The notes below the pieces were generated by a model, which worked only from the letters and a program-made list of their open reading frames with translations, was not told where the DNA came from and made no database searches. DNA of 64,000 nt, from contig JAAOMT010000076.1 of NCBI GenBank assembly GCA_016748015.1, positions 258,522-322,521 on the forward strand, read 5' to 3'. The stretch comes from Geosiphon pyriformis (taxonomy: Eukaryota; Glomeromycota; Glomeromycetes; Archaeosporales; Geosiphonaceae). Below are positions 30,928-61,359 of this stretch, piece after piece. Both the position numbers and the translations under genes were made by a program. The number at the start of each line of letters is the position of its first letter. Position 1 is the first letter of the stretch.

Positions 30928-31431
30928 ATGACACCTTTGAAATCAGCAAAACCTTTGAATCAACGAAAACGTCGTAACCCTTACGAAATTGACACGACTG
31001 GTCGCCGATATATATTCCAAGTAAGAGGAGCCGAATATGCAAAAAGCCGTCGGTCAAGAAATCAAAATTCATCATGTGATAGTAATTGTAAAAGTTGTGA
31101 GGAATCAAATGAATTTTTTAATTTTATGGAAGCTCAACTTGATGAATTTGAAAAGAAGCTAAATAATGCGATTCAAGTTGCCGAAAATTCTTGTCATTCT
31201 AATAGTGAAGATAAATTTTTTGCTGAAAAATTGAACATTGATTTCTCAAAGATGAGCATTGATGAATTGCTGAAAGTCTCGAAAAATGTTGGTGATTTAG
31301 TTTCAAGCCCAAGGTCAAAAACGGATTTTCAAAGAAAAGAAAAACCCCGCTCTCAACAAGAAACATTAGAGTTTGATTTTAATAATCAACTCGAATATTC
31401 TACATTGCCTGATATGATATTATGGGTGTGA
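30928..31431 (+). CDS. Small CxxC/coiled-coil family protein 1 (intronless)
   Basis: A single exon of 167 aa, the longest and leftmost member of a local family I do not recognise. It has a basic N-terminus, the family block YEIDTTGRRYIFQVRG (about residues 19-34), a CKSC pair (54-57), an acidic amphipathic helix likely to form a coiled coil (about 60-90), and the C-terminal block DFSKMSIDELLKVS (about 109-122). Where five relatives have an intron between the FSxM-like and SIDELL-like parts, this gene reads through. A ~45-residue extension unique to this copy follows. No signal peptide or membrane segment is seen. Function is unknown; the basic start, paired cysteines and coiled coil would suit a nuclear dimerising protein, which is inference only. 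Confidence 0.7.
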   Translation: MTPLKSAKPLNQRKRRNPYEIDTTGRRYIFQVRGAEYAKSRRSRNQNSSCDSNCKSCEESNEFFNFMEAQLDEFEKKLNNAIQVAENSCHSNSEDKFFAEKLNIDFSKMSIDELLKVSKNVGDLVSSPRSKTDFQRKEKPRSQQETLEFDFNNQLEYSTLPDMILWV

Positions 31432-32635
31432 ACCAAATCAAATTATTTTATGTATATTTAATCTCATTACCTCTATTGGTTGATTCAAGAACGAAAGATT
31501 TTTATATTTATTTTGTTTAATTTTAATTTTGAGAAAAAAATTATATATATAGAAAAAAATAATCAAAAGATTAGATCTTTATATCCGAAAAAATATCGAT
31601 TTAACAAGACATTTATTTAAAATATATTCTTAGATCAAAATAGAATAATTTGATCCGAGTGAAAATATTTTTTCTTTCATAAAACGTTCATTTTAAAAAA
31701 ATTTTATTCCTATCGTTTAAGAGTTTAGAAAAACGAAATATTAATAAGCATGTGAAAGCTTGAGATTTTTCATAGAACTTTCTTTTAGAAATTGAATCAT
31801 CTTCAAGATATATTGTAATCTATAAATGCTATTTTTCACAATTATTTATCTTTAAAAGAGCAAAGAATGAAAAAAATATTTTTATTTGAATAACTTTTTA
31901 TTTTATCCATGAATCTGATTTTATAATTGTTGGATAAAAAAATTTTCATCTGTTTAGAATATCAATAGTGGGGAGTACCGAAGTAATTTTTTTTTTACTC
32001 GGGAATCATTTTATTAAGGAAACCTTCCTTAGATTATTAATGCAGTTTTTACTAATATCAATGTTTCTAGAAGATCAATTTAAATTTTTTGGGAATTCCC
32101 GTAAATTTAAATAAATAAACTTGAACACATGCCGGATTTGTTTACTTTCATTAATATATACCAATTGTCTAATTATGGGAAAAAATTCTTATATCTAATC
32201 CAACTGGGTTTTATTCATGCAGCAAATGAAAAGCCTAGATTTCTGTTTTATTCTGCTCAATAGAATCTGTGGCAAAGTAGTTGAGCGACATCAATTCGTT
32301 ATGGCGTCTTTTTAATTTCTTTTATCATTTATTTATAGTGTTACGAGCTTTCAATTGTAAGATTAAATAAAAAACTTGGAAAATTTTTTTAGATCGGTGA
32401 GTTCGGAAAACAACTTGCGGAGATAGTGAATATCGAAAATATATAAAGCGAGAATTGGTTTCAGGTTTCGAGGTGTAATTTTTTCAAAAGATTTAAATAG
32501 AGGTAATTACTACTATTTAACTCTGAAAGTTTCACTAGAATTCGTTACAAAACAAAAACAAAAACAAAAACAAAAACACTTGCTATTCTTTCTTTGAATT
32601 CATAAATCCCAAAAAAATTATCTAATTAAAACGAG
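31432..32635. other. Intergenic region between family genes 1 and 2
   Basis: No gene is supported. A (CAAAAA)n hexanucleotide run lies at about 32551-32578, just before gene 2. Confidence 0.5.
32440..32446 (+). promoter_or_regulatory. TATA box, small-protein gene 2
   Basis: TATAAAG lies about 190 bp before the ATG at 32636. Confidence 0.4.
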
Positions 32636-32962
32636 ATGCAAACCCCTAATTCGACTTCATTTGATGCCACTGGACGGAAACATATCTTTAAATTAAGAGG
32701 CGATAATTATCGTTCTACGCGTCGTTCACTTAATAAAAAACTAAAATTAGAGAAAAATTGCTGCCATTGCAATGAACTCGATCAATACATAAGCACATTA
32801 GAGAAGAGTTCCAGCAACATTGAACAACAATTGAATTATTTAACGGAGCTTTCGAACATGAATTTACAAAGGATTCTAAATAGTGATACAATCACCAATG
32901 AGAAAGTTAATTTATCAGAGCTTAGCATAGATGAATTATTAAGAGTATCAATAAGCATTTAA
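32636..32962 (+). CDS. Small CxxC/coiled-coil family protein 2 (intronless)
   Basis: A 108-aa single-exon member, the shortest. It shows FDATGRKHIFKLRGDNY (residues 9-25), an RR pair shortly after, CCHC (39-42), a coiled-coil stretch QYISTLEKSSSNIEQQL, and the C-terminal ELSIDELLRVS. The last block directly follows VNLSEL with no intron. It is otherwise unrecognised. All family blocks are present and spaced as in the relatives, and this conservation argues it is a real gene despite its size. Confidence 0.68.
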   Translation: MQTPNSTSFDATGRKHIFKLRGDNYRSTRRSLNKKLKLEKNCCHCNELDQYISTLEKSSSNIEQQLNYLTELSNMNLQRILNSDTITNEKVNLSELSIDELLRVSISI

Positions 32963-33157
32963 TTTAATAATCCAAAATAAAAAGGATATTTAAGTTAAAA
33001 ACATTTCAATCTAAGCAAATGTCAACATTTCTTGAAAAGATTCTTTTTTTGAATATTTTTCATTTCTTTAAAATTAAGTTTTAAGAAACTTTCCCATAAG
33101 TTACATTTAAAGTTTTCAGCATCATAGAATTTGGCCTTTTGAAGATCTATATAAACA

Positions 33158-33191
<34 letters not shown>

Positions 33192-33561
33192 CTCTAAAAA
33201 AGTTTTGCACATGTAATAGCTTTTCTACTTTTTAAGATGGCTAATTATAAAATTGTGAAACAATGACATCATATTTTCACCAATTTAATATGTGGAATGC
33301 TTAATTCAGAAGTAAAATTAGATAACAATGTAAAAAAAATGTCGGTAAACCGGGCTCGGAAAACGAAGAATACCCGGTTGTACTACATCTAGGTAAAAGC
33401 CCGTTAGATGTGACCAGTTTTTTGCATAATAAAAAAATTATATATATAATTAGTTTGGATTATGAAAAATAGATAAAAAAAGATTTTCGCTTCAAATAAA
33501 AAGTTTAAAGCAATTAATTTCAAATTTTTGCAAACAAATTTATCAAAGTTCTCTAATCACA

Positions 33562-33760
33562 ATGTCTCCAATTAAATCTATCAAAAAATTTTTCTTGATT
33601 CAAAGACGAAATGCTTCGCAAATTAACTCCGGTACTCATCAGCAAATATTTACGGATCGTAAAAATCAAATTTCTAAATCAACCTTTCAACGGTTAAATC
33701 CTTATATAAATGAATGTTATTCTTTTAAATACGAAGAAGAAGAAGAAGAAGAAGAAGAAG

Positions 33761-33792
<32 letters not shown>

Positions 33793-33972
33793 CCTGAAGA
33801 AATAATCAACGAGATGCAACTCCGAATTCAAGAAGCCCAAGAAAAACTTAATCATCTAATAGAAGCGTCAAAGATAAATGTTCCAACGAATGGTGGTCGG
33901 TTTTTAAAAGAACAACTAAATTTTAATCAATTAACCACAGATGACCTGTTAAAGATGACAGAAGATCTCTAA
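33562..33972 (+). CDS. Small-protein family member 3, divergent, with poly-Glu
   Basis: A 136-aa single-exon protein. It keeps a recognisable N-terminal block (NASQINSGTHQQIF in place of IDTTGRRHIF), a predicted coiled coil (EIINEMQLRIQEAQEKLNHL) and the C-terminal NFNQLTTDDLLKM, but the CxxC pair is missing; only one Cys remains near residue 52. Nineteen consecutive GAA codons (33733-33789) encode a poly-Glu run before the coiled coil. The inverted copy at 47.3-47.6 kb has only six. It is a diverged paralogue of the neighbouring genes. Function is unknown. Confidence 0.6.
33733..33789 (+). repeat. In-frame GAA microsatellite
   Basis: Nineteen GAA triplets in frame encode poly-glutamate in family gene 3. 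The duplicated copy has six triplets at the same site, so the tract length is unstable. Confidence 0.9.
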
Positions 33973-35511
33973 GCCCAATTTTATGAAAACCAAAATTATA
34001 GATTAATTTAATTTAATGTTAATTCGTAAATGACTAAAATTTGATAACTAAATTATAAAAAAATAAGCTGAAATATATGAAAAATATGTAGAAAAATTTT
34101 TTTTCTTAAAAATAAAGTTTCAATCGTATGACTTTCTGGGTTTTGCCGGTGAAAATCGTTCGATTTATGAGAATTGTTGTAAAATATTTATTAATTGAAC
34201 TGTTATAAAAGAGATTCCGAAAATTGAACTAATTAAAATTTTTACTAATATACTCTTGAACGTTTTTACACTAATAATTTTTAATTTCTTAGCGTCCGAC
34301 TACTATAATATATCGAAATTCTTTAGTTTTAAGAGAATCTAGAATTCGAAAATATTATATATAAAAATATATAAACTTTTATTTCTCTTCAGACCATCTA
34401 ATTCTCGGAAACAAAGTTAAAAATCAAGATTTTCTTTAGAAATTTTCGAATGCAGAGAGGCTTCAAAGGTGGATTATTTTAAATTTAGTACGAATATTGT
34501 TGAATAACTATAACGAGCTAAATATTTTAATATATAAATATTTTAGAATTATCTTTACATATTTAGAGCTTTTAAATTCCGAACGAATTCTCCAAAGAAA
34601 TCTAGTGGTTAAGATCTTGGTATTCTTTTGCGTTACCAAGTCAAATATCTCAATTTTGCTTTTAAATAATTAGCTAATCTTCAAAAATAATTTTAAATCT
34701 GCATTAATATTCTTAGTAGAAAAGCTCGACACTTTTACATTCAGAAAACTTACTCAACTGAGTTGAACATCTTTACGAGTCTTTTATAATAAGTCGAATA
34801 AAAATGTCGCCCACTTTCCAAATATTGAAAAATGTCAAACCTCAGAAAAATCATGCAACAATAATCAATAATCATTTCTATAAAAGGTCTACAGGTAGAA
34901 TTTTTATTGTATCTCTCGTTTAATATATCTCATTGAGAAAACTATATTTATTGTAATAATAATAAATTCGCAGAAATTGAGAACTATTTCAATAGGATAA
35001 TAAAAATTATTACTTATAAAAATGTGTAAATAATATACGGTGCAAGTTTATTTGAATGGTTTATTTCTTAAACGGGAGTCCGAATAATTCGGACCCTATC
35101 TCATACGGAAATTGATATAATTAATCTATTTTAGGTGACAGCGCCCAGCCCTTTTCAGAGCATATCGGATCCCAAGGTTCCTCTTTACTTTGTTAGATCC
35201 CGTTTTGATCCGTACACTATATTTAGTAAAAGATTGTTTTTTGTTTGAACATTCTAGATTATATAAGAATTTAAAATCCAGAATTAAATTCAATTAAATT
35301 AAATTCAATTCAATTAAATTAAATTCAATTCAATTCAATTCAATTCAATTCAATTCAATTAGAATCTTCTTCACGTCCATAGGAGCTGATTAAGATTGAA
35401 AAAAAGTATAAAAAGCGATGATAAATTTAAAAATTTTTTGTATTCAAAGGAGCAATTTCCATTCAAACTATAAAATATTTTTCATCTCAAAATTTAACCT
35501 CGAATAAAAAT
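33973..35511. other. Intergenic region with an AATTC pentanucleotide repeat
   Basis: The part up to 34857 belongs to the inverted duplication. A run of TCAAT-type pentanucleotides lies at about 35287-35360, just before gene 4. No other gene is seen. Confidence 0.55.
35407..35414 (+). promoter_or_regulatory. TATA box, small-protein gene 4
   Basis: TATAAAAA lies 105 bp before the ATG at 35512. Confidence 0.5.
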
Positions 35512-36025
35512 ATGCCTCCTTGCAAATCAACCTTAAATCACAGTCAAAAAAGAAATACATACTCTAAAAAGTCCAAATCAAGTTATAATCATGTATTTCG
35601 AATTTCTGGTGACCAATATTCCACACGTAAAATAAACAAAGAAATTAAAACTGTAAATGATTGTTGCAACTCTTGTCAAAAACATGTAGAATATATGGGA
35701 ATTTTACAAGATAGCCTAAATCGTATGACAGAAAGATTGAAAGAACTTGAGGAGGAAATGACTAAAAAAGTTCAATACGCTTCTTCGTATCTAGAAACTT
35801 TCAGTGCTAATGCCACGAATTATTCTCAAATGGTAAGTTAAATTTGATTGATTCTTTCAAAAACTGTTAATAAAATATGCTAACCAGTTGAATATGCACT
35901 TACCAATATTTATCTTTTTATAGAGCACAGAAAATCTTTTAGAATTCTCTCAAAACTTTTCAATGCGTTTAATATATGTAGAGACTGGGAAAAGTAATAC
36001 AAATGTAGGAACACGAACCAAATAG
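35512..36025 (+). CDS. Small CxxC/coiled-coil family protein 4, 2 exons
   Basis: Exons are 35512-35832 and 35924-36025 (140 aa). The donor is ATG|GTAAGT and the acceptor TATAG|AGC. Exon 1 holds a basic N-terminus, NHVFRISGDQYSTRK as the family block (the TGRR part is degenerate), CNSC (about 53-56) and a strong heptad-like helix (MTERLKELEEEM). It ends in NYSQM. Exon 2 starts STENLLEFSQNF, the family C-terminal block, and has an extended tail. The join is phase 0 at the same place as in genes 5, 6, 7 and 9, which supports the splice model. Function is unknown. Confidence 0.68.
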
Positions 36026-36833
36026 AAAATGCATAATTTTTATTATTATTCAAGAATTTGATTACCTTTTCTTCAATATTTTATTTATTTATTTTCTTTG
36101 AATGGTTTGAGATTTTGAAAAAAGAAAAATCTATGTCTTCAATATAGGAAAAATAGTTTCTATCTAACGATAAAATTCGTCGATCTTTTTTTAATAAGCC
36201 CAATCGGCAACCTCCATCATCTCTGTAATTTAGAATTAATAATGAATATTCTCAAAAGCCTGTGAAATTCAAACAAATTTTTCAAAGAAACATTACTACA
36301 CACACATAAACTTTCTAAAAAAGAAAAAAAGAAAAAGGGGGTTAGGAAATTTCTAACCAATGTAAATCTGAATAAGCAGGCTCATTACTTGAACAATAAA
36401 AAATTTGTTATTCAAATAATCTACTTCGATTTTGTTGTCCAAAAAATATCAAAAGAGCATATCTTTTAGTAATTCTTTATTATCAACACTCTCAAAGATC
36501 GATAGTTGACAAAAAAAGAAATTCAATAATATAACAGTTGAGAGTGGTAAATAAAAAAAATAAAAAAATAAATTTAAATTTCAAGTTACGTATTAAGGGT
36601 ACAATCTTTGATCTTATTTTCAAAAAACACGGAGTAAACTTATTCTAATCAGACAAACTCCTGTAATTGAGATTTTAAAGCATAACGGGAACCACTCTTG
36701 ATAAATTACAAGTAAAGAGCTCGTGATCGGGAAAGAATTAGCTAGCAATAGGTTTCGATAAGAGTTTAATTTGTTTTAAGTCTTTTGAGTATAAATTATC
36801 TTCTAAAAAGATTGTTTCATCTAAAAAACTTTT

Positions 36834-36890
<57 letters not shown>

Positions 36891-36901
36891 TAATAATAAT
36901 A

Positions 36902-36943
<42 letters not shown>

Positions 36944-38893
36944 TTTTCAATATTTTTAGTTTCACTTTTCGGGGAAATTTCTTTGTTTTATGCATTAACT
37001 TATTAATCTAAAGTCTGAATTTCGAATGCAATTTAAAAAAGGAAAAAAGAACAAAAAGGCCTCAGTGGGCCTGGAAAGATATCTAAAATCATTACCAATT
37101 AGCATTTTGAGTACATATACTATTTCTTTTTATGCGAATGTTTTGCCAAGATTAGAGTAAATATTTTTTTACAAAGCTCATTCATTAAATTAAAAATTTT
37201 GTAATATAATCCCCCAGGGAAAATATATGAATCAAACTTGTTTTTACCTTGAGCAATCGATCGAGAATTTTTTTTTCCCCTTAATTATGTGTTTTTTCTT
37301 TGATCAATTAGAACCGTTCAAAATAATAGATTTCAAACCTGAACTTAAAAAAAATATTGTCTTTATGTCCCACAATGTGAATTAATTCGAATTTTCTCTT
37401 GGAAATACTAAATACTAAATACTAAATACCAATCATAATTAAGATGTATATATATAAGTGACAATTGAAACATTTTCACTTTAGGATTTAAAAAATTGAA
37501 CCATTATTTAAGAAATTTGAAGAAAAATTTTATTCAACACACTCGACAAAATAAGATCCTCATAAAACAATATCCATTAATAGAACAGGATTAGCTATGA
37601 CTAATTTTTGTAACTAAAACACAAAGAAAAGGTAATAGAAATCTTGAAAGAAAAAAGATTTGTAATATAAAGAGCGATAATTTCCGTTCAAGAGAAACAA
37701 TATCTGTAACCGAATTAGATTAGATTTTATTTTGTCGTTCAAAATAAAACAATAAGAGAAAGAATAGTAGAAAGCAGAGATTAAATTAATGAGAAAAATG
37801 GGAAATTTTATTTTATTTTGTAGACAAGGAATAGTTTGAATAGTTTGGGTTAACTGCATATTCTAGGTTTCCAAAACTTTAGAAATGGATATAAATTATT
37901 AAGATTCATGCAGAATTTGGATTTACAACGGATTTGATATCGGGCATATGTTTTGAAGCATGGTATATTTAATGTATTATCAATTTGTAGATTTTTCCTT
38001 CATGTGATTGCATATAAAAAAAATGTTTACTCGTGGAAAGTTCTATCCGATGCCATAAATATAATACAGGGATTAACTTTATGGTTTTATTTACATTCGG
38101 ATGACGTTGATAAAGAGTTTAAATGATAATATTTTTTTTAATGCATAAAAAAATTTTGTTCTCTTGACCCGAAATAATAATGAACGCCTCTGTCGTACAA
38201 TGACTAGATTTGATGAAACTAGAAAATTTGAATTTTAAAGCCTCATTGAGGCTGATATTGTTGTAGCTTTTCATTCCCCCGTTTGAGATTGATTATAATG
38301 CAATAAAAAAATTGAAAAAAAAATTGAAAATTTTTTTTCTTTTTTCAAAGTAAATTTAATGGGAAGTAAATGTCTGATAACAATTTAGATATGAAAGTAT
38401 TTAAAAGTCTGACTTTTTTATGCTTTGATGAACAAATTAGGCCTTTTAAAGTTTTATTTTATAATGGTAGAAAGAGCAAGAAAAGTTCAGATTCATCATT
38501 TACATATTCACAATATATTTTAGTCTTTGAAAAAAATCAACCGAAAATCACCTATGAAACATTTGTGAGCTATAAAACTAAAATTCTTTTGAATACTGAA
38601 TTTAGCCAAAAAAATTAGTAACCTCAATCAAATTTACAAATAGAATTTCATTTAAAAATATCTCAAGCTACAACATTCTGCAGAACTAGCCACACTTGTT
38701 GCAGTTCTCGCTAAGAAGCGAGACTAAAATATAATTATTAAATTAATTCATTTGGAAGTTAAATGACAAATGAGAAAAAACTAAACTAATTATGGAAAAA
38801 CTCAACATCCCAAAAATTGCTTGATCTCCTTGTTTTTTTTTCAATAAATTTATCAGCCTCGTACCCTTGCCTTTTACTTTTTACCTTTTAAAA
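36026..38893. other. Intergenic region with a long TAA microsatellite
   Basis: A (TAA)n tract occupies about 36835-36942 with two one-base slips. Apart from the possible short gene at 38370 I see nothing recognisable; other open frames here consist of AT-rich codons or of the microsatellite itself. Confidence 0.55.
38370..38618 (+). CDS. Possible short hypothetical protein (82 aa)
   Basis: An open frame of 82 codons has a rather normal amino-acid mix (SDNNLDMKVFKSL start, KSSDSSFTYSQYILVFEK centre) compared with the AT-junk frames around it. I see no family motif, TATA box or splice site to support it. It could equally be chance or a relic. Confidence 0.2.
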   Translation: MSDNNLDMKVFKSLTFLCFDEQIRPFKVLFYNGRKSKKSSDSSFTYSQYILVFEKNQPKITYETFVSYKTKILLNTEFSQKN

Positions 38894-39382
38894 ATGGCAC
38901 ATTTAACCTCTCTAAATTCTTTACAAGGTCGTTCAAACACTAATGGTGCAATGGATACTACTGGAAGGCGTCACATTTTTAAAATTAAAAGTGATAAATA
39001 TCCTCCAATCCGTCGTACTCAGAAAATTAGAACGAATTTAGAACTTTGCAAGAGATGTGATCAAAATGACCAGTACGTTGAAACGCTGGAAGCTCATATA
39101 GATGAATTGGATAGAGCCGTAGAGAATTTAACACATTTGTTAAATTGTCTCATCAATATAAGTCCTGATCTTGAGAGCAAAAAAAATTCTTTTATTTTAA
39201 ACGATTCAAATCAATTCTCAAATTTGGTAAGAAAGTTAACCTTTATATACTTGATTTATAAAGTAATTTTATTTAATATCTCATTAAATTTTGCTTTTAA
39301 TATATCAATATTATTTATTTAGAACATTGAAGAATTATTGAAATTTTCAGACAAAATCACAGAAGAAACAAAATTAAAATAG
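38894..39382 (+). CDS. Small CxxC/coiled-coil family protein 5, 2 exons
   Basis: Exons are 38894-39226 and 39323-39382 (130 aa). I start at the second in-frame ATG because MAHLTSL matches the MA starts of genes 7 and 9. The protein has MDTTGRRHIFKIKSDKY, then PPIRR, CKRC (about 52-55) directly followed by DQNDQYVETLEAHIDELDRAVENL (a coiled-coil start), and NQFSNL before the intron. Exon 2 gives NIEELLKFSDKIT. It is the clearest match to the family consensus. A (TTA)n run lies 3' at 39429-39469. Confidence 0.75.
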
Positions 39383-39429
39383 TTTTAAACATATGAAAAA
39401 AATACTATTTATCATTTTTTCTTTTGAAC

Positions 39430-39468
<39 letters not shown>

Positions 39469-40454
39469 TCTGTAAGAATATATAAATTTTAAAATGTCTC
39501 ATTACCTATCTTCTTCTTCTTCTTCTTAATTCAGATAAGCTTATGATAAAATTAAGTTAATAGCTTTTTTATTAAATAGAAACCCATGACTTAAACTGGA
39601 AATTCTTATCCAGAATTATTAATGATTAAAATGTTCCCGGGTATGGTTAAATATGGTAAAATGTATAGCGTCATCGGCCGCTCAGTGATCTTCATTTACT
39701 TGCTGACTGCTGGACTAATAATTTCATGAACGAACAAAAAAAATTAAGCCTTTGATGTAAGTAATCAATCAAAAGAATTCACATGTTTTGAGTTAAAAGC
39801 CCATTTAAAGGCAAAAGAAACTTTAAAAAAAATGAGTCAAGAAGAGAATAAAATGAATTAAGATTAGTTATTTTTGATTTTTTGGAAAAACGAGCACATT
39901 AGGGATAAAAGCTTAGTCATGCTTCTATTATATCAGTTTTCCGAACACTCATGATAATATGAAAAACTAATTTTGGTAAAAAATAAAAAGAAGCAATATG
40001 AGAGTTGATTTTTTTTTTTTTTTTTCATTGACCAAGAAACTTTAAGAATTAAGTTTTTTTTTAAAAAAAGGAAATATTACAATTTTTATCTTCATAATTT
40101 TATGTATCCAATTTTAATTATTCAAAATTAATTCGTTAACGAATCAATATATTAGATTAATTGTAATTAATTTTCGTATCACAGTGTATGACATCTGATC
40201 CAAATTTTATGGTGTCATTATAAGAAAAAAAAAATGAAGTAATGGATATTTTTGGATATTTTGGCGCTATAATGACGCTTGTTTTTAATGCCTATTCCAG
40301 AAATGTGAAAAGAGATCTTGGAATTAAGATTACAAATGTTTATCTTTTCATCTGGGAGTTATTTATTTGAAAATGTGACAAATGAAAGGGGTGTGAAAGT
40401 CACTAAAATAGAAAGTCATTAAATACTTGGCGGAATTGCATGAAAAAGCCATTA

Positions 40455-40485
<31 letters not shown>

Positions 40486-40968
40486 AATGAACTGATTCAA
40501 AAATCATAAGTTAGAAAAATACAAAATTATTCACATGTAAAATTATATTAAAAATTTATAATTTTAAGCCCAATTTCTTAACAAAGAATTAACAAATGGC
40601 TTAAAAATGGTTCTTATTCAGTTGAATAATAATTTATTTAAATTTTTAATCTTAACAAGAAAGTTTTTAATTTGTGTAAAATTTTCTTTGTTTAATTAAT
40701 TTATGAAATTGAAATATTTTCATTGGTAAATTTCAAATTGTATTAGTGTAGTATATAATATTTTTTATATGAATTAAGTAACTTGAAAAAATAATTTTTA
40801 ATATACTAAATATTCTGATTGAAAAATCAGTTTATATAAATACTATTCAGAATAACTCCTCAAATTTTAGATCAATTTACTTCTTTGAATCGGCAAATAT
40901 TTTAGTTGCTAATTTCAATAAAAATTCTGAATTCCCTTAAAAATTATGTTTCTTATAAGCTTCACAAA
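39383..40968. other. Intergenic region between family genes 5 and 6
   Basis: It has (TTA)n at 39429-39469, (TTC)n near 39510, poly-T at about 40011-40025 and (AAAT)n at about 40457-40488. No gene is supported. Confidence 0.55.
40833..40842 (+). promoter_or_regulatory. TATA box, small-protein gene 6
   Basis: TATATAAATA lies about 127 bp before the ATG at 40969. Confidence 0.4.
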
Positions 40969-41441
40969 ATGTTGAATCAAAAGTCTCAAGCAACAAAACT
41001 AAAATCAATTAGTAATTTCACTTCAAAGCCAAGAATTCATCGAAATAATTCTGTAATTGACTTGAGTGGTAAAAAGCACATGTGGATCATTAGAGGTCAA
41101 GGCTACTCTTCATCTAAAGCTTCTAAGAAGCAAGAAACAATCGAAACATGTCGAAAATGTAATCAAACGAATCACTATGTAGATGTTTTAGAACAAAGAT
41201 TAGAAACGATCGAACAAGTTGTAAATAATTTAACTGCTTTGACAATTTCAAACGTTAACCATGATAACAATCCAACAAACCAACAAATATGGACAGATAT
41301 TTCTAATATGGTAAATTCAAAATTTCAATATTAAAATAGAAAAAAAATATATCTTTTCTAAAATATAAAAATTAATATATTTTAAATTTTTCTCTAAAGT
41401 CAATAGATGACCTTTTACACCTCGTAATGAATTTGTGTTGA
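40969..41441 (+). CDS. Small CxxC/coiled-coil family protein 6, 2 exons
   Basis: Exons are 40969-41310 and 41400-41441 (127 aa). An upstream in-frame ATG at 40906 exists, but the segment between is not conserved in relatives. The family blocks are IDLSGKKHMWIIRGQGY (about 36-52), CRKC (65-68), HYVDVLEQRLETIEQVVNNL as the coiled coil, WTDISNM before the intron (donor ATG|GTAAAT) and SIDDLLHLVMNLC after it (acceptor AAAG|TCA). The splice model recovers the C-terminal LL block exactly where expected. Function is unknown. Confidence 0.72.
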
Positions 41442-42669
41442 AACGCCTAAAAATTTATAAATTCATTACATTAAGCCTTTAATTTTAAATCAAATAATTT
41501 TGTAAATAACTCTTTAAGAAGAACTATGTTTATACAGTGAAAAAGGGTTACTTTTTGAATTATTTATTAATTAAGAGCTCTTTTTTTAGTTTAAATATGA
41601 TTTTTGAATTAAGCTTTAAATTATTTTGAGCAATAAGTTTTTTTATAACGTACTATCTATGTGGTTTCAAATTAAATCAAATCAAATCAAACTAAATTAA
41701 ATATTTTATTTTATTCTCGAAGCTAGAAAATTTTTAAGAGTAATTTCCTGTTTAATCAATAAATATAAAATTATTTGGATGATACGGAGTTTTTACTCCT
41801 CATTAATTTAAATTTTAAATTTTTTCAATTACAAAGTCATGAACTGGTCACGATGTCATTTTATGAATTAATTGGTTCTAAATATATATATACTATTTCA
41901 TCATCAAGCATTAATAAATGGCAATTGAAAGAAGATACATACAAGGTACAATTGTCATAAAAATTTTTTTTTTTCATTCATCCACGTTTTCAAAATTCAA
42001 ATATCAAGTTTAATAAATATTCAACTTGTTTTGAATCTGAAATCAAAATTAAGTTTGCCATTTTTTTATGATATCATTTATGAAAAGTAAGAATTGATCA
42101 CATAGAAATAACTTTCAAAAGTATTAAACAATTAAAATTAAATATTTATTACTTTTTTGTACATATTCTAAACATAAATAAAATTAAAAAAAGTGACTCA
42201 GAACTCCCATACTAGAACTTTAAAATATATAGAATTATTTCGGAAAAAAAATTATCTTTTGGGTAAAATTTTTATTCTCTTATCCCTTCTTTCCAATTAA
42301 GAAAATTTTTATTTATTTTATATCCATGTTTCATTTCATCAAAAAACTGCATGATGTATGTCAATAAAAAAAATTCATACATACATGTATTGCGCTGTCT
42401 ATACATGTGTATCATATATATAATATTCAAATATATGATCTTAATTAATACAGTTGATTTCTTTGATTAAAAATGTGATGCGAAAGGCGTTTTTCTAACT
42501 TATAAGAATAATTAATATTCTGAAACTATAATAAATAAATAAATAAATAAATTGAGAGTTATTGAGAGTTTTCATTTAAATTATACATAAAAAATGCTAT
42601 AACGGAAAGTGATGAAAAAATTTATTGTTTCTCTCGTAATATTTAAAGAAACCATGGGAAACGAGTCCT
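41442..42669. other. Intergenic region, contains a shared non-coding repeat
   Basis: The block 42240-42640 recurs in reverse orientation at 46330-46575 and 50400-50660. Outside it I see only AT-rich sequence and a small unsupported frame at 41775-41960. Confidence 0.55.
42240..42640. repeat. Dispersed non-coding repeat, copy 1
   Basis: Shared stretches include CTGCATGATG, the TTATAAGAAT region and AAAAATGTGATGCG. It is inverted relative to the copies at 46.3 kb and 50.4 kb. It lies just 3' of family gene 7, as copy 3 lies 3' of gene 9. No terminal repeats were identified. Confidence 0.7.
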
Positions 42670-43192
42670 TTAACCATTTTTTTCGGACTGCAATTGAGCT
42701 TGAACTGTGCCATATATGTCGTACTGAATTTTTTCTGACATTTCCAAGAGTTCATCTGTGTTCTAAAAAAGTTATAAAATTAATATTTAAAACAAAATAC
42801 CATTTTATATTTTCAAGTCATTATTTAACAGAACAGAACAAAAACAAAAAAGAGATGAAACCTACTATCTTTGAAAAATCCAAGGTTCTAATCGGAAAAG
42901 AAAACCTTTTTTTATTTCCAAAGCAATCAAAATCTTCAATCTTTACCAAACCAGTCAAAGTTTGAACTACATTGTCTAAATTATCGAGACGAGCTTCAAG
43001 AATATCAATATATTGTTCATTCTGGTCACAGTATTTACAATCTGGAAATTTTTTGCCATTATTCAAACGTCTCAAAGGAGGATAGGTAGAGCCTTTCACT
43101 TGGAAAACGTGTATACTTCCAGTTACATCTATTTCGTTAGAATTATTTTTTTTATCATTTCGTGACATTCCACTTGATTGTGATAGAGCCAT
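42670..43192 (-). CDS. Small CxxC/coiled-coil family protein 7, 2 exons
   Basis: On the minus strand, exon 1 is 43192-42866 and exon 2 is 42762-42670 (139 aa). The donor is ATA|GTAGGT and the acceptor TTTTTTAG|AAC. Exon 1 carries NEIDVTGSIHVFQVKG, PPLRR, CKYC (about 52-55), then DQNEQYIDILEARLDNLD and LDFSKI. Exon 2 begins NTDELLEMSEKI and has a ~18-residue extension. Without splicing the frame would run into a hydrophobic intron-derived tail, which no relative has. It is the first of three family copies on this strand. Confidence 0.75.
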
Positions 43193-45310
43193 ATGGATTT
43201 TTTAAAATAAAAACAAGTGTGTGAAATGACAGTAAATAATTTTACAAAAGGTTAACGAGGGATTTTTATCTTTATATATATATGAGTTTTATCAATAGGG
43301 AGACCGAGTTTCAAAACCTGTTGTGTTTAACTGAATTAAAAACTACAAATCCCTATATACCATAAATAATTAAAAAAAAAAAATTTTAACGCTAAAGCTT
43401 TAAAAAAAATATACTATTCTTATCTTCGGAATTAATTCACCTATCAAATTTGATAAAGATTTCTATTTTGTTAAAGTGTCACTAGTAATTCCGGTGTACT
43501 TTCTTATATAAATTCAGTTGATGAAGTTTTTCAAACGACATTTAATTATTTGAGTTTATATCATTTATACCTTTATGTTTACACCTCTTCTCTTTGAGAA
43601 TTTATAAAAAGAAACACTTTTTGATTTGTTAAACGTAAATAATCTAATTCTAATTGCTAATTTTTATAAAGGAATTTCTTTAAAAACTATAAATTACAAT
43701 TGAAAATATTTTTATTATGTTATTGATAGAATTATTAATTAGTCATTTAATTCAATGACCTTCATTACTAATTGGAGTTTCAATCATTTTGAAACTGTAA
43801 TGATGTATGGGGGAAAGCTAGGCGCAAATAATGATGTTTTATTTATTTTTTTCTTGAATCTCGATTTCTAAGAAACAAAGGTTACCCCATTTAAAAATTT
43901 TCCTATTGGAAACTCAATCAAGCTTTATAAACGCCACGCTACGCATTATTCACAAATATAATTTAAATCTTTTAATTGTCTTTATGAGTTTATGTTGTGA
44001 ATTCATGTGGTTCCATTTTTAGATTTTATTTTTCAAATTAATAATATTGGTTCAATTGAAGTAACACTACAGTAAACTCGGGATAAGGTATCTATGTATA
44101 TATTTATTGAAATTGAATAATCTTTCTATTTAATTTTAAAAGACATTTTTTCATTTAATTGTCATTTAAATTATTTGGTTCCAAAGGATTTAACTTTCCG
44201 GTTTACTGTTTACTGTTCAAGATATTTATTTTAGAACAAAATTTCTCATATTCTTTTCGTAAAACTCTTTATCTCGTAAGTATTTTTTTATTTTCCTGAT
44301 ACTTTATTTAATTCTAAGTTATAATCTTTATTAAAACTGTCTAAAAATGTTGGGAGATTTCTTCAGTCTTGGTGGTTGAAAAAAAAAAAAAAAAAAAAAA
44401 TTTGAAAAATTATATTCTTAAATTTTAAAAATAAATAGCTTAAAACAAGACCAGGATGACCAATTTATTGAACCATAGAGCATTTTAGAAGATATCAATT
44501 TTTTAATAAAATCTTCAAATTTCTCAATATTTGAACTTTTCTTCGGCAAGAAAAAAATTACTACTACTTTATCGAATTAAAAAGTAAAAACTGGATTTTG
44601 AAACTATTTGTACAATATTTAAAAGAAAATTTTTTTTTTAATTTATCCAAGTTATTTAAAAAATATCAATTTATTAAAATTTTCATACTTTCATCTTGTT
44701 CATAAGAAACTAAACTCTGAATTCTTAAATAAAATTTTTACAGAGGAATCTTGAATAAATTTCTTCACATTCTCACCCTGTTACAGGATGATAAATAATG
44801 TTTGTTTGAGCTTAACTGACTTGAGAAAAAACAATGATTCTTGTTATAATTGTTAAAAATGATAATTTTAAAAGAATTGATGCCAATTTTGGAATGTAAA
44901 AGAATGTCTAGAAAAACTTTCTGATGCTTCGGTGACTATCAGTATTAAATGATTCAATCAGGAGTAGACTCATATTAAAGTGGGCCTCGTTTAAATTTGA
45001 AAGGACTAATGACGTCGATTTTTAGCTTAATTTTCGAAATGGTATCAAGTTTATTTGTACCACAGAAATATATAGTTTAATCTTAGTGGTTCATCCTAAT
45101 CATTCCAAAAAAATATCTGATCTAAGAAAATTATTTCCGTTTTAATCATATTACATAGGAGTAAAACGAAAGCGTTATGCTGCAGTTACTTATTCTGGAG
45201 ATCATCCATAAGCTAAATTTAGGATTAAAACCTTTTACAATATATCACACGAAATGTTCAAGGAAATACTTATAAGCAAACTATTTCGTCTTGAAACCGT
45301 ATCTTTTAAG
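43193..45310. other. Intergenic region
   Basis: It contains the promoter of gene 7 and a poly-A tract at 44380-44400. I see no gene. From about 45240 the sequence is duplicated (inverted) near 48960. Confidence 0.5.
43270..43280 (-). promoter_or_regulatory. TATA box, small-protein gene 7
   Basis: On the minus strand TATATATAAAG lies about 80 bp before the ATG at 43192. Confidence 0.45.
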
Positions 45311-46006
45311 ATGCCAAATTCAATTATCTTTAACTCAACATTGTTTCCTCATAGACGTGGTCCTTGGACTCATTGCGTAAATAGTTCAATTCTTTGTTGC
45401 CCACAGATCATTTATCTCGATGTTTTAAGAGGAAATTCATTCTATCACTTTCTTTCCCTAGGAAGATAGAGATCTTAGGAGGTTCTATCTTCAGTTGGGA
45501 CCATTGTGGTCTGAGATTGCTCGTAGAATACCCTGGAGAACACCAAAGCAGATAAGAGAGAGGTGGTTATTTAAAAAACCTTTAATATTCTTGTAATATA
45601 CAACTGCTCTGAAATAGCATAAAAATTTTTCCCTTATATTTAAAATGATTTAAAGATGGGTAAATCATTTAGATCCATTGAGTAAGTTTTATTTTATTTT
45701 AAGACTTTTGAATAAAAAAATTCTGTGCATTTTGAAGAATGAAATACTAAAATCATTAGCTGAAATTCTCCACTTTTATTTTGTTCTATGAAAACAGTCA
45801 ATAAAAACCCATTTACCGAGGTAGAAAGAACAAGAATTAATTCCAAATTCCTGTTAGTCGGACCACAATGGTCTCGTATCGCTCAGGAAATTTCCTCACC
45901 AGCTTCCAAACGTACTCCGCTTATGGTTAGGAATTATTGGATAGCAAACGAAAAAAGGATCAATCGCGTTCGTTTACACATGGCTGTTCCTAGTATTCTA
46001 AATTAA
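45311..46006 (+). CDS. R2R3-MYB-like transcription factor A, 4 exons
   Basis: Exons are 45311-45376, 45462-45562, 45656-45681 and 45798-46006 (133 aa). Introns are GTAAAT...CTAG, GTGGTT...AAAG and GTAAGT...ACAG. The spliced protein contains two adjacent MYB repeats. The first has W19, W38 and W57 at the classic 19-residue spacing (RRGPWT, LGPLWSEIARR, RTPKQIRERW). The linker is VNHLDPLINKNPF. The second has F70, W89 and W112 (VGPQWSRIAQEI, VRNYW). The 26-nt third exon encodes the conserved linker. Such domains bind DNA through the third helix of each repeat. There is almost nothing outside the domain, so any activation or repression must come from partners. An inverted, structurally identical copy lies at 48189-48889, and family genes flank both. 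Confidence 0.85.
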
Positions 46007-46571
46007 AATTAATGATGATCTGGAGTTTACCAATAACATAGACTTTTATCTTTATTATAGAAGCTGTTCCAATTACTGATCTGGAGTTTACCATTAACAT
46101 AGACTTTTATCTTTTATCACACAAGCTATTCCTGAACTTAATTTTATATATGCTAAGATTTTAGATTCAAATGATTTTATTCAAAAAACTTTCTTTTTTA
46201 AAAATTTTATTTGGTAGTTTATAACCTAATAGAAGCTGGCTGCTGCATTAATAAATTCCAAATTTCATCCTCTTAAAATAATCATCTTTAATTTCAGCTT
46301 GATCGTTTTTTTAAAATATTATGAGAGAAACAATAAATTTTTTCATCACTTTGGGTTATAGCATTTTTTATGTATAATTTAAATGAAAGCTTTCAAAAAA
46401 TTCTCAATTTATTATTATAGTTGCTGCGCATTTGCAGAATACTAATTATTCTTATAAGCATGGAAAAATGCCTTTCGCATTACATTTTTAGTCAAAGAAA
46501 TCAACGGTATTAATTAAGATCATATTTGAATATTATATATAATGTATATGTATAAGGTCGACATACATCCT
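46007..46571. repeat. MYB A 3' flank with tandem duplication and shared repeat
   Basis: A unit beginning GATCTGGAGTTTACCA is present twice (about 46018-46078 and 46079-46136). The downstream sequence to about 46330 matches 49270-49490 in the same orientation, and 46330-46571 is the reverse complement of 42360-42640. No gene is seen. Confidence 0.7.
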
Positions 46572-48150
46572 GCATGCTTTTTTCTGAGGTTTTGACATTT
46601 TCAGTATTTGGAAAAGTGTGAATATTTTTATTTGACCTATGTCAAAAGACTCGAAAAGATTTTCAACTCGGTTGAATAAGTTTTTTGAGTGTAAAAGTGT
46701 CGAGTTTGTCTACTAAGGATGTTAAATAAAGATTGAATAATTTTTTAAAAGCAAAATTGAGATATCCGACTGAGAAATGCAAAAAACACCAAAATGTCAA
46801 TCAATGATTCCTTTCGAAAGATTATCATGTTTAGAGAAATTTTCTCAAAGTTTTTGGGAATTTAAAAGGCTCTAAATATGAAAGGCAATTCTAATATAGT
46901 TTTATATTAAAATATTTAGCCCCCGTTATAGCTATTCAACAATAATCGTACTGAAATTGAAATAAGCACCTTTGAAAACCTCGCTATATTCGAAAATTTC
47001 TCAAGAAAATCTTAGCTTGTTTCCGGGAATTAGAATGGTGTGAAGAGAAATAAAAGTTTAGATGTTTAAATGCAATATTTTCGAATTCTGGAGTTTCTCA
47101 AAACCAAAGAATTTCGATATTTTTAACTAGTTGGACGCTAAAAAATTTAAAAATTATTAGTGTACAAGCGTTCAAGAGTACATTAGTAAAACTTTTTAAT
47201 AGTTCAATTCCTGGAATCTCGTTCATAACAGTTCAATTAAAAAAAAGTGCAAATAATTCTCATAGCAATTGGGTAAAATCTAGTTGCTCTTTTAAAAACC
47301 GACCACCATTCGTTGGAACATTTATCTTAGACGTTTCTATTAGATTATTAAGTTTTTCTTGGGCTTCTTGAATTCGGAGTTGTATCTCGTTGATTATTTC
47401 TTCGGGCACTTCTTCTTCTTCTTCTTCGTATTTAAAAGGATAACGTTCATTTATGTAAGGAGTTAATCGCTGAAAGGTTGATTTAGATATTTGATTTTTA
47501 CGAGCCGCAAATGTTTGCTGATGAGTACCGGAATCAATTAACGATGCATTTCGTCTTTGAATCGAGAAAAATTTTCGATGGATTAAAATAGAACCATTGT
47601 GATTAGGGAACTTAAATATATTTGTTTTCGAAATCAAAGAAATTAGTAGCTTAAACTTATTGTTTGAAGGGAAAATCTTTTTTATCTATTTTTCATCACC
47701 CAAATAAATTTTTTTTTGTATGCCAAAAACGAGTTATTACTCATATTTCGACTAAATTTTTATCGTATGCAAATGGCGCTTGCATAACTTCATAAATGTT
47801 GTACAACCGGGCAATTTTCCGTTTTCCGAGACAACGATTTTTTCATTGTTCTAATTTTATTTCCTGATTTGATTCCACAAAGGATGATATCCTGCATTAT
47901 TGAAGATTAAACACGTTAACTTGGAAAAAATAGGATGTCATTTTTGCGCAGTGTTATAATATTATGTTTCTATAGATTTTGAAAAGGCCAAATTCTGTGA
48001 TGCTGAAAAACTTTAAATGTAAACTTATGGGAAAGTTTCTTAAAACTTAATCTTAAGAAGGAAAAATATTAAAAGATTCTTTATCTTAAAGGGAATGAGA
48101 AATTTCGAAATTTCGAAATTTGCCTAGATTGAAATGAATCTAAAATCTTA
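46572..48150. repeat. Segmental inverted duplication, right arm
   Basis: Reverse-complement counterpart of 32990-34857, about 0.29 kb shorter. The difference is mostly a ~220-bp deletion covering the C-terminal coding part and 3' UTR of the family gene and a shorter GAA tract. Confidence 0.85.
47260..47637 (-). pseudogene. Small-protein family member 8, truncated copy of gene 3
   Basis: Inverted duplicate of gene 3. Conserved parts are RRNASLIDSGTHQQTF, QISKSTFQRL and QLRIQEAQEKLNNL, with six GAA codons instead of nineteen. Two lesions are visible. A one-base deletion near the start puts the ancestral ATG out of frame, so an open frame can only begin at an upstream ATG. A ~220-bp deletion after DFTQL removes the TTDDLL block, so the frame ends within one codon. 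Whether a shortened protein is still made cannot be told from sequence. Confidence 0.7.
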
Positions 48151-48188
48151 ACATATATAAAATTAAGATCAGGAATAACAGATCATCA

Positions 48189-48889
48189 TTAATTGAGAAT
48201 TTTTGAAACAGCCATGTATAACCGAACGTGCTCGATCCTTCTTTCGTTTCTTATCCAATAATTCCTAACCATAAGCGGCGTACGTTTGGAAGCTGATGAG
48301 GAAATTTCCTGAGCGATACGAGACCATTGGGGTCCGACTAACAAAAACCTGTAATTAATCCTTGTCCTTTCTACTTCAGTGAATGGGTTTTTATTGACTG
48401 TTTCCATAGACAAAATAAAAGTGGAGAATTTCCGCTAATAATTTTAGTATTTCATTCTTCAAAATGCACAGAAATTTTTTTTGCAAAAGTCTCAAAATAA
48501 AATGAAACTCACTCAGTGGATCTAAATGATTTACCCATCTTTAAACCATTTTAAACATAAGAGAAAAAGTGTTATGCTATTTCAGGACAACTGTATAACA
48601 CAAGAATATTAAAGTTTTTAAATAATCACCTCTCTCTTATTTGCTTTGGCGTTCTCGAGGGTATTCTGAGAGCAATCTCAGACCAAGATGGTCCCAACTG
48701 AAGATAGAGCTTCCTAAGCTCTCTATCTTCCTTGGAAAGAAAGTGATAGAATGATGCAAATTGAATTTCTCTTAGAATATCAAGATAAATAATCTGTATG
48801 CAACAAAGAATTGAACTATTTACGTAATGAGTCCAAGGACCACGTCTAGGTGGAAGCAATGTTGAGTTAAAGATAATTGAATTTGGCAT
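48189..48889 (-). CDS. R2R3-MYB-like transcription factor B, 4 exons
   Basis: Minus-strand exons are 48889-48824, 48730-48630, 48538-48513 and 48397-48189, with the same lengths (66, 101, 26, 209 nt) and phases as gene A, giving 133 aa. Introns begin GTAAAT, GTGATT and GTGAGT. It keeps all repeat signature residues (RRGPWT, LGPSWSEIALR, RTPKQIRER-W, VNHLDPLINKNPF, VGPQWSRIAQEI, VRNYW) and differs from A by scattered substitutions without stops or frameshifts. Intact splice sites and open frame in both copies after clear non-coding divergence suggest both are maintained. Same inferred role as A: a minimal two-repeat DNA-binding protein. Confidence 0.84.
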
Positions 48890-50399
48890 CTTAAAAGTTA
48901 CAGTCTCAAGATGAAGTAATTTGCTTATAAATATTTTCTTTTGGTGTGATTTATCGTGAAGAATTTTATTTTAAATAAATTATTGAGCTTTTTATGCGGG
49001 ATTTGGTTTCAAACCTTTCAAAACTGATTTCCAAGAAAAATTTTAAAATTCCGGGTCCTAAAAATATATATTAACATTTAGCTAAATTTGGGACTTTTGG
49101 TGAAAAGTGATCACCCCGAGAGTAACATCTTGCATGCTTTTGCTATTTTAATTTGGATGCACACGTTTGTTTGTAAAGGGCGTACATTTGGTTGCAGATT
49201 AAATCAGTTTCTTTTGAGTAAATAATTTCGTATTTTTGCATGAATCAGTGGTACAATGATCCATATCAAAGATTCACAATTAATGATGATCTGGAGTTTC
49301 ACAAGTTATTCCTGATTTTAATTTTATTTTTAGACTTAAGATTTAAATAATTCTACTCAAAAACTTTCGTTCTTAAAATTTTTATTAGATAGTTTATAAC
49401 CTAATAGAGGCTGGCTGCGACATTAATGAAATTCCAATTTCATCCTGCTAAAATTTCCATCTTTAATTTCAGCTTAATCGTTTTTTAAACAATGCTACTT
49501 AATTTCTACAAATTGTAAGACAAGAAGTGCAATGATTTTATAATTCAAAAGATGAAATTTTAACTATTAAAAGGGATATTTGCTTGCATATAACAGATTA
49601 TAAAGTTTATAATATCGCTTCTTTTGGCTCTGAACACCGACGCCCAAATCATTGAAAGCGCAAGATCCTACTCTTTTCATTGTAGCACATCAACATTGGA
49701 TCGTTTTGAGCAACCAAAGTTACCTGGGGACGAAAGAATTTGATGTTCAGTAGTATTGAAATTTTTTTTAAAAAAAAACAGTCCTTGAGGAGTTTCTATA
49801 ATCGGATTTTCACACAATGCCGATGCATTTAATTTTCCACAAAAAATAAACATCCCTACCAAATCCCTTGTATGTATTTCATTTAAAAACATTACATTAC
49901 ATCCTTGGAAAAAATAATTTCTAATTTAATGATTTCTCTCGCCACAATTTAAATTTTTTACCTTGTGAAACTAAACAATGGTAGACCTTCTGATTTCAGA
50001 TTAAAAAGATTTTTGTTTTTGGAATAAAATTATTTCTTGAATTGGCAATTCCTTTAAAAGAAAATTATTCAAGGTAAACTTTGATTTCTATGAAAAAAAA
50101 AAAGCTGTTCATATACCTCTACTCTCTTATTTATTCTATTCAATATTCAATAATCTCTAAAGTTATTTTTCATTTAAAAAATTTGAATATTCTTAATAAA
50201 CTTGCGGATTTTCATTTCTAAAAAAAAACGCCTATTGAGGTATTTTAATAATAAAAATATTGTCCTTCAAACACGAAAAATTTTCAATCTCATATTGGCA
50301 AATATCAAGAAAAGATTGTACCGATTTTTTTTATTTTAAATCTCCCTGACAGGTTTCATAGAAATCTATTAGAAAACGGTTTAATGTAAATATTACGAG
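48890..50399. other. Region between MYB B and the shared repeat
   Basis: It includes a third relic of the MYB 3' flank at about 49265-49495 (GATGATCTGGAGTTT...). It also includes a ~890-bp segment (about 49498-50388) absent from the matching position near 46335. That segment holds an antisense 71-codon frame (49677-49892) that I do not recognise. Confidence 0.5.
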
Positions 50400-50660
50400 T
50401 GGATAATAAACCTTTCATCAATTTGGATTTTAGCATTTGTAAAATATTTATTATTCTTATAAGCATAGAAAAACGCCTTGTACATCACATTTTTATACAG
50501 AGAAATCAATTCTAAAAGTAAGACCATATTTGGAAATGAATAAGGATTTCGATTGATATGCATCATGCAGTTTGAAACAGGGAGATAATATAAAAAGTTT
50601 TTTCTTAATTGGAAAATAAAGGATAAGAGAAACAAAATTTTAATAAAGGATAATTTTTTA
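50400..50660. repeat. Dispersed non-coding repeat, copy 3
   Basis: Reverse complement of 42240-42600, including CATCATGCAG and the AATTGGAAAATAAAGG region. It lies about 300 bp 3' of family gene 9. Confidence 0.7.
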
Positions 50661-50977
50661 GAAGTATATTAAATAATCTTATGTCTTTTGAGATTACAGC
50701 ATAGAGTTTTGAGAATTTCTTTTTTTAATACTCGCTTATTAATAATTGGGTAAAAAGAATTTCATGATAAAAAAATAACTTAATTAATTACACGGTAAAG
50801 AGTATCAGTTAAAAAAATCTCCATTAGGAATATAAAATAAGGGTTACTAAGAAAAAATTTATAAACTTGAGAAGTTTAATTTAGCCGACTTAGGGCACAC
50901 ATCTTTAAATGAGATTTTTCATTTTTAAGTTTTAAAATTGTTATTCTTTATAAAAGTAAATTAACCAATGATAATTT

Positions 50978-51443
50978 TTATAATTTTTGAGATAAATTCA
51001 AGAGGTCCGTTATATTCTGTAAAATTATGAAAAGAAAGAAAGGGCAAAAAATTATTAAAAAAGAAAGAATGCAAACTAATAATGGTTTCATAAGATAGAT
51101 TTTTACATACCAAAGTTGAAAAATCCATCATTAATTCATTTTGAGGGCTTGAAGAATTATTCGAGCTATTAATTCTACTCTTTACCAATTTATTCGATAC
51201 TAATTCCAAGTTTTCTAATTTTGCTTCAAGAATTTCAATATATTGAGTGTTTTGAACACAGTACTTGCAATCCTGAGATTTTTCAGTTATATTAAAGTCA
51301 CGTCTTGACGGGTACGAAGAACCTTTGATTTTAAAAATATGTCTTTTCCCTGTAGTGTCTATTTCATTTTGATTGGTTGTTGTATTTTTTAAATTAGATA
51401 TTGAAGATTTGATACCAGTTTTATAAGAATTTAAAAAGGCCAT
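50978..51443 (-). CDS. Small CxxC/coiled-coil family protein 9, 2 exons
   Basis: Minus-strand exons are 51443-51111 and 51016-50978 (123 aa). The donor is TTG|GTATGT and the acceptor TTTTACAG|AAT. Family blocks are NEIDTTGKRHIFKIKG, YPSRR, CKYC (about 54-57), QYIEILEAKLENLE, MMDFSTL before the intron, and NITDLLNLSQKL after it. The N-terminal two thirds is close to gene 7, with which it also shares strand and a downstream copy of the same non-coding repeat. Confidence 0.75.
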
Positions 51444-60300: not shown

Positions 60301-60426
60301 AAGGGTTATTGGCCATCTGTTTATCAAAACAAATCCTTCTAGAATTCCAATTTGCACAAATTCCAATTGAATAAATAAATTTCAGAGACCTCAAATTTTC
60401 AATAAAAGTCAACCTCTTAAAAAAAT

Positions 60427-61327: not shown

Positions 61328-61359
<32 letters not shown>

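What the first reader, a model, noticed from the sequence alone, without database searches (positions are those of the whole stretch)
30928..51443. Cluster of nine loci for an unrecognised small-protein family
Nine loci in 20.5 kb encode short proteins with a shared plan: D-[TS]-G-[RK]-[RK]-H-[IM]-F-[KQ]-x-[RK]-G-x2-Y, an RR or similar pair, CxxC, an immediate [QN]YxxxLExxL coiled coil, then [DN][FLY]Sx[LMI] and [SN][IT]x[DE]LL. I know no family with this order. CxxC alone cannot make a zinc site within one chain, so dimerisation through the coil with an intermolecular metal site is an attractive but untested idea. Local amplification next to two MYB genes and an HMG gene suggests a fast-evolving, lineage-specific gene family, possibly regulatory.
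Basis: partly seen in the sequence, partly recalled or inferred. Interest (0 to 1): 0.9.

Follow-up and report, generated by a model that had tools for sequence, protein, structure and literature searches.

The report
Fungal cluster of small zipper proteins
A fungal genome carries a cluster of small, fast-changing and almost certainly real protein genes with a shared zipper-like plan and no name in the family library searched; they look like pairing proteins, perhaps regulators, but what they do is untested.

Summary
Nine related loci lie in window 30928-51443: eight intact gene models (A-H) and one broken copy (C2). Genome-wide protein searches link the branches (H to G at 3.7e-18; C to A at 1.5e-5). 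Five genes share a phase-0 GT-AG intron at one alignment position, just before the LL block. Contig C132 carries collinear copies of B, C and D: coding DNA is 76-86% identical with 5 of 5 indels multiples of three, while DNA between and around the genes is 49-57%, against 47-49% shuffled. Pooled dN/dS is 0.58, so constraint is mild. Broken copies lie on two further contigs. Plan: mostly basic N-terminus, CxxC in 8 of 12 models, four-heptad zipper-like stretch, linker, SxxELL block. No Pfam match reaches its cut-off for the window loci; PDB profile matches are weak. Best reading: a locally amplified family of dimeric zipper proteins, probably nuclear modulators of transcription; this function is inferred only. 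The C branch has an acidic tract in place of CxxC and may be an antagonist. A required zinc clasp is unlikely. No other fungal genome could be searched, so lineage-specificity is open.

The parts
30928..31431 (+). gene A, no intron at the family position, 167 aa; DTTGRRYIF, CxxC, zipper-like stretch, FSKMSIDELL, longer tail
   Evidence: open frame; matches B, B', G, H, E, F at E 8.6e-13 to 5.4e-7
32636..32962 (+). gene B, no intron at the family position, 108 aa
   Evidence: open frame; copy B' on contig C132, E 3.7e-37, 60% identity
33562..33972 (+). gene C, no intron at the family position, 136 aa; poly-Glu tract where CxxC would be; zipper-like stretch and LL block kept
   Evidence: open frame; a query from it finds gene A at E 1.5e-5 and C' at 4.7e-41
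35512..36025 (+). gene D, exons 35512-35832 and 35924-36022 plus stop; 140 aa
   Evidence: GT-AG phase-0 intron of 91 bases, same place in D'
38894..39382 (+). gene E, exons 38894-39226 and 39323-39379 plus stop; 130 aa
   Evidence: intron of 96 bases; query
40969..41441 (+). gene F, exons 40969-41310 and 41400-41438 plus stop; 127 aa
   Evidence: intron of 89 bases; matches B', H, A, B, E, G
42670..43192 (-). gene G, exons 43192-42866 and 42762-42673 plus stop; 139 aa
   Evidence: intron of 103 bases; broken copy on contig C300, 81% over 498 aligned columns
47260..47637 (-). locus C2, broken inverted copy of C: no methionine in the frame, no LL block
   Evidence: 80% identity to C over 486 columns; frame
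50978..51443 (-). gene H, exons 51443-51111 and 51016-50981 plus stop; 123 aa
   Evidence: intron of 94 bases; best other match in the genome is G at 3.7e-18
45226..46022 (+). MYB gene copy 1 (neighbour, not a family member)
   Evidence: PF00249 in 45788-46003, E 1.1e-5; inverted copy at 48968-48179, 86%
48179..48968 (-). MYB gene copy 2 (neighbour, not a family member)
   Evidence: 86% identical to copy 1 over 806 columns; not scanned on its own

Best explanation
A locally amplified family of small intracellular proteins that pair through a short leucine-zipper-like coil and act in the nucleus as regulators or partners of regulators. Shown from sequence: common ancestry, a shared intron position, mild coding constraint, a heptad column pattern, a basic N-terminus in most members. 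Inferred: the zipper dimerises, homo- and heterodimers alike; where CxxC is present, the two of a dimer may close the N-terminal end of the coil by zinc or disulphide; the basic N-terminus with its HIF block meets nucleic acid or an acidic partner; the SxxELL helix behind a variable linker docks on a co-regulator. The C branch, with an acidic tract where CxxC would be, would pair with basic members and damp them. Copies turn over by small inverted and dispersed duplications, with broken copies left behind.
For: Homology. Phase-0 intron at the same alignment place in D, E, F, G, H and D'; by eye a matching GTAAG...AAAG interval in the frameshifted C401 copy. Between the clusters B is 81.5%, C 85.5%, D exons 78.9% and 75.8%, D intron 69.3%, six non-coding stretches 49-57% against 47-49% shuffled; 5 of 5 coding gaps are multiples of three against 18 of 76 in the non-coding stretches. 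Pooled dN/dS 0.58, bootstrap 0.42-0.81, Fisher p 0.0013. Heptad columns: LIVMF in 9-12 of 12 sequences at six of seven a/d places. N-terminal net charge +3 to +11 in A, B, D-H, B', D' and -12 in C, -2 in C'. No net repulsive g-e sum in any pairing of the eight intact window proteins (simple charge count over three g-e places).
Against: No transcript, localisation or structure evidence; nuclear location is a guess from charge. In a whole-protein shuffle test the heptad passes p<0.05 in 4 of 8 proteins (B, D, E, G); A 0.25, C 0.45, F 0.25, H 0.91. The seventh a/d column is LIVMF in only 3 of 12 and one non-a/d column in 8 of 12; the register was set by hand and the 12 rows include close copies. 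C2 has N-terminal charge +1. CxxC and the HIF motif are each lost in some open copies. No DNA-binding domain is matched. A crude neutral simulation with the local base bias gives dN/dS 0.80 on average, with 7 of 400 runs at or below the observed value. Non-coding DNA between the clusters is more diverged than dS 0.32 would predict, which is unexplained.
Confidence: 0.45

Rival explanations
1. Degenerate bZIP transcription factors: an ancestral basic-leucine-zipper protein lost its DNA-binding signature and kept the zipper.
For: The CREB zipper is among the PDB profile matches, aligned over the CxxC-zipper stretch (E 0.033-0.17); gene F hits bZIP_2 at E 0.2; the zipper start EY[VI]xxLExR[VL]xxLE of CREB is shared (alignments).
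Against: The bZIP signature and the relaxed N-x7-[RK]-x9-L each occur in 0 of 12 models (patterns recalled). Zippers converge easily and the scores are at noise level.
Confidence: 0.15
2. Relatives of subunits of the general transcription machinery (TFIID TAF5 or Mediator Med4).
For: TAF5 matches the 8-sequence profile at E 0.0037 over profile places 5-93; protein E matches Med4 at 6.6e-4, 19.8 bits against a cut-off of 26.9.
Against: TAF5 falls to E 0.19-0.46 with the 11-sequence profile; Med4 is hit by 1 of 11 members.
Confidence: 0.06
3. Non-nuclear scaffold or signalling adaptors, or host-directed effectors, with the zipper used for assembly.
For: Fast evolution and local turnover fit effector-like genes; function is untested.
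Against: N-termini are hydrophilic and mostly basic with no obvious signal peptide (by eye; no predictor run).
Confidence: 0.25
4. Not genes: chance open frames or a mobile-element remnant.
For: 3 of the 14 known copies are broken (C2, C300, C401).
Against: Low copy number, shared intron, frame-preserving indels and gene-limited conservation between clusters.
Confidence: 0.03

Closest known systems
bZIP transcription factors (CREB-type zipper)
   Same: basic N-terminal side followed by a leucine-zipper-like coil; similar start of the zipper; weak PDB profile match
   Different: no N-x7-R signature (0 of 12); CxxC or poly-Glu near where the basic helix should end; extra LL block
Zinc hooks and zinc clasps (Rad50 hook, CD4-Lck clasp; recalled)
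   Same: CxxC on each of two chains could share one zinc
   Different: CxxC is not universal here (8 of 12); no structure available; the Rad50 hook sits at a coil apex
A-ZIP acidic zippers (engineered dominant negatives; recalled)
   Same: an acidic tract next to a zipper, in gene C, could mask a basic partner
   Different: natural, unproven; the tract differs in length and make-up between C, C2 and C'

Membership tests
bZIP | basic-region signature, N-x7-[RK] spaced 9 from the first zipper Leu | tested here: not met
   0 of 12 models for either pattern (patterns recalled)
bZIP | Pfam bZIP model above cut-off | tested here: not met
   of the 9 window loci only gene F shows one, bZIP_2 E 0.2, 12.2 bits against 22.3
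bZIP | heptad leucine zipper | tested here: inconclusive
   column pattern at six of seven places; per-protein shuffle p<0.05 in 4 of 8
TAF5 / Med4 | profile match at family level | tested here: not met
   Med4 19.8 bits against 26.9, 1 of 11 members; TAF5 chains E 0.0037 to 0.46
intermolecular CxxC zinc clasp | CxxC in every member | tested here: not met
   8 of 12 models
intermolecular CxxC zinc clasp | bound metal in a dimer | not testable with these tools
   structure prediction switched off

The most novel reading that the evidence does not exclude
A natural basic-zipper / acidic-zipper pair system: a cluster in which CxxC-basic members dimerise and a sister branch (C), with an acidic tract where the CxxC would be, heterodimerises with them as a built-in dominant negative, the set turning over by local duplication. 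B, C and D kept together in one order on two contigs would fit a co-inherited set.
Probability: 0.1. Interest if true: 0.75.

Novelty: new variant of a known kind. Interest (0 to 1): 0.42.

Why it matters
If the family is confined to this fungal lineage, it is a compact case of a zipper-type protein family arising and diversifying in place, with two clusters and a shared intron to anchor it, and a ready set of possible partners to test for specific pairing. If it is found widely in fungi, it is still a family without a name in the library searched, but less surprising.

Tried and rejected
Chance or mobile-element origin: disfavoured by low copy number (14 places on 4 contigs), the shared intron and gene-limited conservation. 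Allelic haplotig: C132 (all 76,975 bases) gave four DNA matches at E<=1e-8 to 134 kb around the window, all at genes B, C, D and the C2 copy, so it is not simply the other haplotype of this region. A widespread repeat that seeded the cluster: the 42183-42655 repeat has 3 places in the genome, all in this cluster. Subtelomeric copies: the C300 copy is 4.5 kb from the contig end, but no doubled TTAGGG was found in that last 10 kb. Shared TATA box: TATAAA within 300 bases in 8 of 11 upstreams, with 0.53 sites expected on average; not pursued. A zipper-start pattern was mis-specified and its zero is ignored. The loose DNA pattern was useless (5603 hits). Viral and prokaryote collections with protein E: 10 and 121 stretches matched a peptide pattern, none was confirmed; this finds close relatives only. 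Papers: five searches, of which the top 20 of 538, 11 of 11, 12 of 148, 0 of 0 and 8 of 48 were listed; only listings and starts of abstracts were seen, no paper was read; no title or abstract start listed describes this family.

Left out of the pooled dN/dS: the C2 pairs (C/C2 0.35, C2/C' 0.57) and the E, G, H pairs (0.14-0.41 with dS 1.3 or more, near saturation), all.
Full report
WHAT IS THERE. Nine loci between 30928 and 51443 encode short related proteins. I call them A (30928+), B (32636+), C (33562+), D (35512+), E (38894+), F (40969+), G (43192-), C2 (47260-47637, minus) and H (51443-). Eight are intact models. C2 is an inverted copy of C (80% over 486 columns) with no methionine in its open frame and without the LL end.

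GENE MODELS. The open frames of D, E, F, G and H run into an intron. In each, a GT-AG interval of 89-103 bases, phase 0, lies between the block that ends in Sx[LMI] and the [SN][IT]x[DEN]LL block. Splicing it gives the LL block in all five. A, B and C have no intron there. The copy D' on contig C132 has the same intron (88 bases), and the frameshifted copy on C401 shows a matching interval by eye. A shared intron place in diverged paralogues is strong evidence of real genes. No transcript data were available.

HOMOLOGY. Six proteins (E, C with a shortened poly-Glu run, H, A, F, B') were used as queries against the whole 124.7 Mb, 406-contig genome; D and G were not. E finds G, H, B, A, F and D, its own second exon, and places on C132 (two), C300 and C401. 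H finds G at 3.7e-18. C finds A at 1.5e-5. In all there are 14 places on four contigs: 9 in the window, 3 on C132 (B', C', D'), one broken on C300 (three stops in the match; 81% to G over 498 columns) and one frameshifted on C401. The C401 copy scores weakly (two pieces in different frames, E 0.02 and 0.10) and rests also on its FDLTGRRHIFK and DFSKF blocks and the intron-like interval, read by eye. Further places on C351, C356, C114 and C366 (E 0.12-0.53) are taken as chance. The search scores only the best candidates, so 14 is a lower bound.

SECOND CLUSTER. On C132, B', C' and D' lie in the same order and orientation as B, C and D. Coding identity is 81.5%, 85.5% and 78.9%/75.8% (two exons of D); the D intron is 69.3% (shuffled 52%). 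Six non-coding stretches between and around the genes are 49.0-56.8%, against 47.0-49.0% after shuffling (8 shuffles each); the best of them, 5' of D, is 8 points above its baseline, so they are near the baseline rather than at it. All 5 internal gaps in coding parts are multiples of three (36, 3, 12, 15, 3), against 18 of 76 in the six non-coding stretches; the two gaps in C involve its repeat tracts. The non-coding DNA is more diverged than dS 0.32 would predict. The genes may have been copied or converted singly; this is unresolved.

SELECTION. NG86 dN/dS is 0.51 (B), 0.53 (C) and 0.67 (D), each with a bootstrap range that reaches just above 1. Pooled over 378 codons it is 0.58 (0.42-0.81; 1 of 2000 bootstraps at or above 1; Fisher p 0.0013). 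A crude neutral simulation with the local base bias gives 0.80 on average and 7 of 400 runs at or below 0.58. Selection is purifying but mild. Pairs left out of the pool are named under Tried and rejected.

PROTEIN PLAN. (i) A stretch of 49-68 residues before the zipper in the CxxC members, net charge +3 to +11, with D-x-[TS]-G-x-x-[HY]-[IVM]-[FW] in 7 of 12 models. (ii) CxxC in 8 of 12. (iii) Four heptads: at the a/d columns LIVMF appears in 11, 12, 11, 9, 11, 11 and 3 of 12 sequences; among the other columns one reaches 8 of 12 (register set by hand, rows include close copies). In a per-protein shuffle test B, D, E and G pass p<0.05; A (0.25), C (0.45), F (0.25) and H (0.91) do not. So the zipper rests on the column pattern, not on each protein. 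(iv) A variable linker. (v) The [LMI][SNT][IT]x[DEN]LL block in 11 of 12. S/T/N followed three places later by D/E/N resembles a helix-capping box (recalled), so the block reads as the start of an amphipathic helix. The C branch has an acidic tract instead of CxxC and keeps (iii) and, except in C2, (v).

FAMILIES. Pfam gives no match at cut-off for any of the 9 window loci (E spliced, the rest as open frames). For the 11 members of A1 the best E is 5e-4, and each of the 25 families listed, of 33, is hit by 1 member; cut-offs are not shown there. PDB profiles give TAF5 at E 0.0037 and CREB at 0.033, but 0.19 and 0.11 when C, C' and D' are included. The bZIP signature is absent from all 12. I therefore do not file it under bZIP, TAF5 or Mediator. 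With protein E no relative was confirmed in viral or prokaryote contigs. No other fungal genome could be searched.

NEIGHBOURHOOD. The MYB pair is an 86% inverted duplication with relatives of its second exon on contigs C165 (four places) and C373 (one). Other short inverted and direct repeats join parts of the cluster; one of them, 42183-42655, has its 3 places only here. The region looks prone to small rearrangements. A tree joins C, C' and C2 (1.00; C with C2 0.93), B and B' (1.00), D and D' (1.00), A with the C branch (0.92), and G with H only at 0.58; the deepest branch has support 0.05.

HOW IT MIGHT WORK. Inference: dimers through the zipper, an optional clasp by CxxC, the basic arm to nucleic acid or an acidic partner, the LL helix to a co-regulator. 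A simple g-e charge count gives no net repulsion in any pairing among A-H, so heterodimers are possible. The acidic C branch could be an antagonist; this is the most novel reading and only a hypothesis.

VERDICT. A real, locally amplified small-protein family with no Pfam name.

Noticed in passing
window 45226-46022 and 48179-48968: Two MYB genes are an 86% inverted duplication; relatives of the second exon sit on contigs C165 (four places) and C373 (one).
   Followed up: partly
window 42183-42655, 46302-46554, 50443-50729: A repeat with three places in the genome, all inside this cluster, lying just 3' of gene G, near MYB copy 1 and near gene H.
   Followed up: partly
window 56628-57952: Partial inverted copy of a gene near 25 kb of the window, with more relatives in the right flank; looks like DUF4419 (recalled, not tested).
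   Followed up: no
L026 and L024 (contig C132, about 36.4-41.1 kb): A tandem duplication of open frames that look by eye like pieces of an Argonaute gene, on the contig of the second cluster.
   Followed up: no
L032 (contig C132 67028-67933) and window 60421-61752: An HMG-box-like open frame on the contig of each cluster (by eye); may be coincidence.
   Followed up: no
L023 (contig C356): A 364-residue open frame ending in CKCCNCC plus a coil-like tail, weakly similar (E 0.53) to gene E; probably chance.
   Followed up: no
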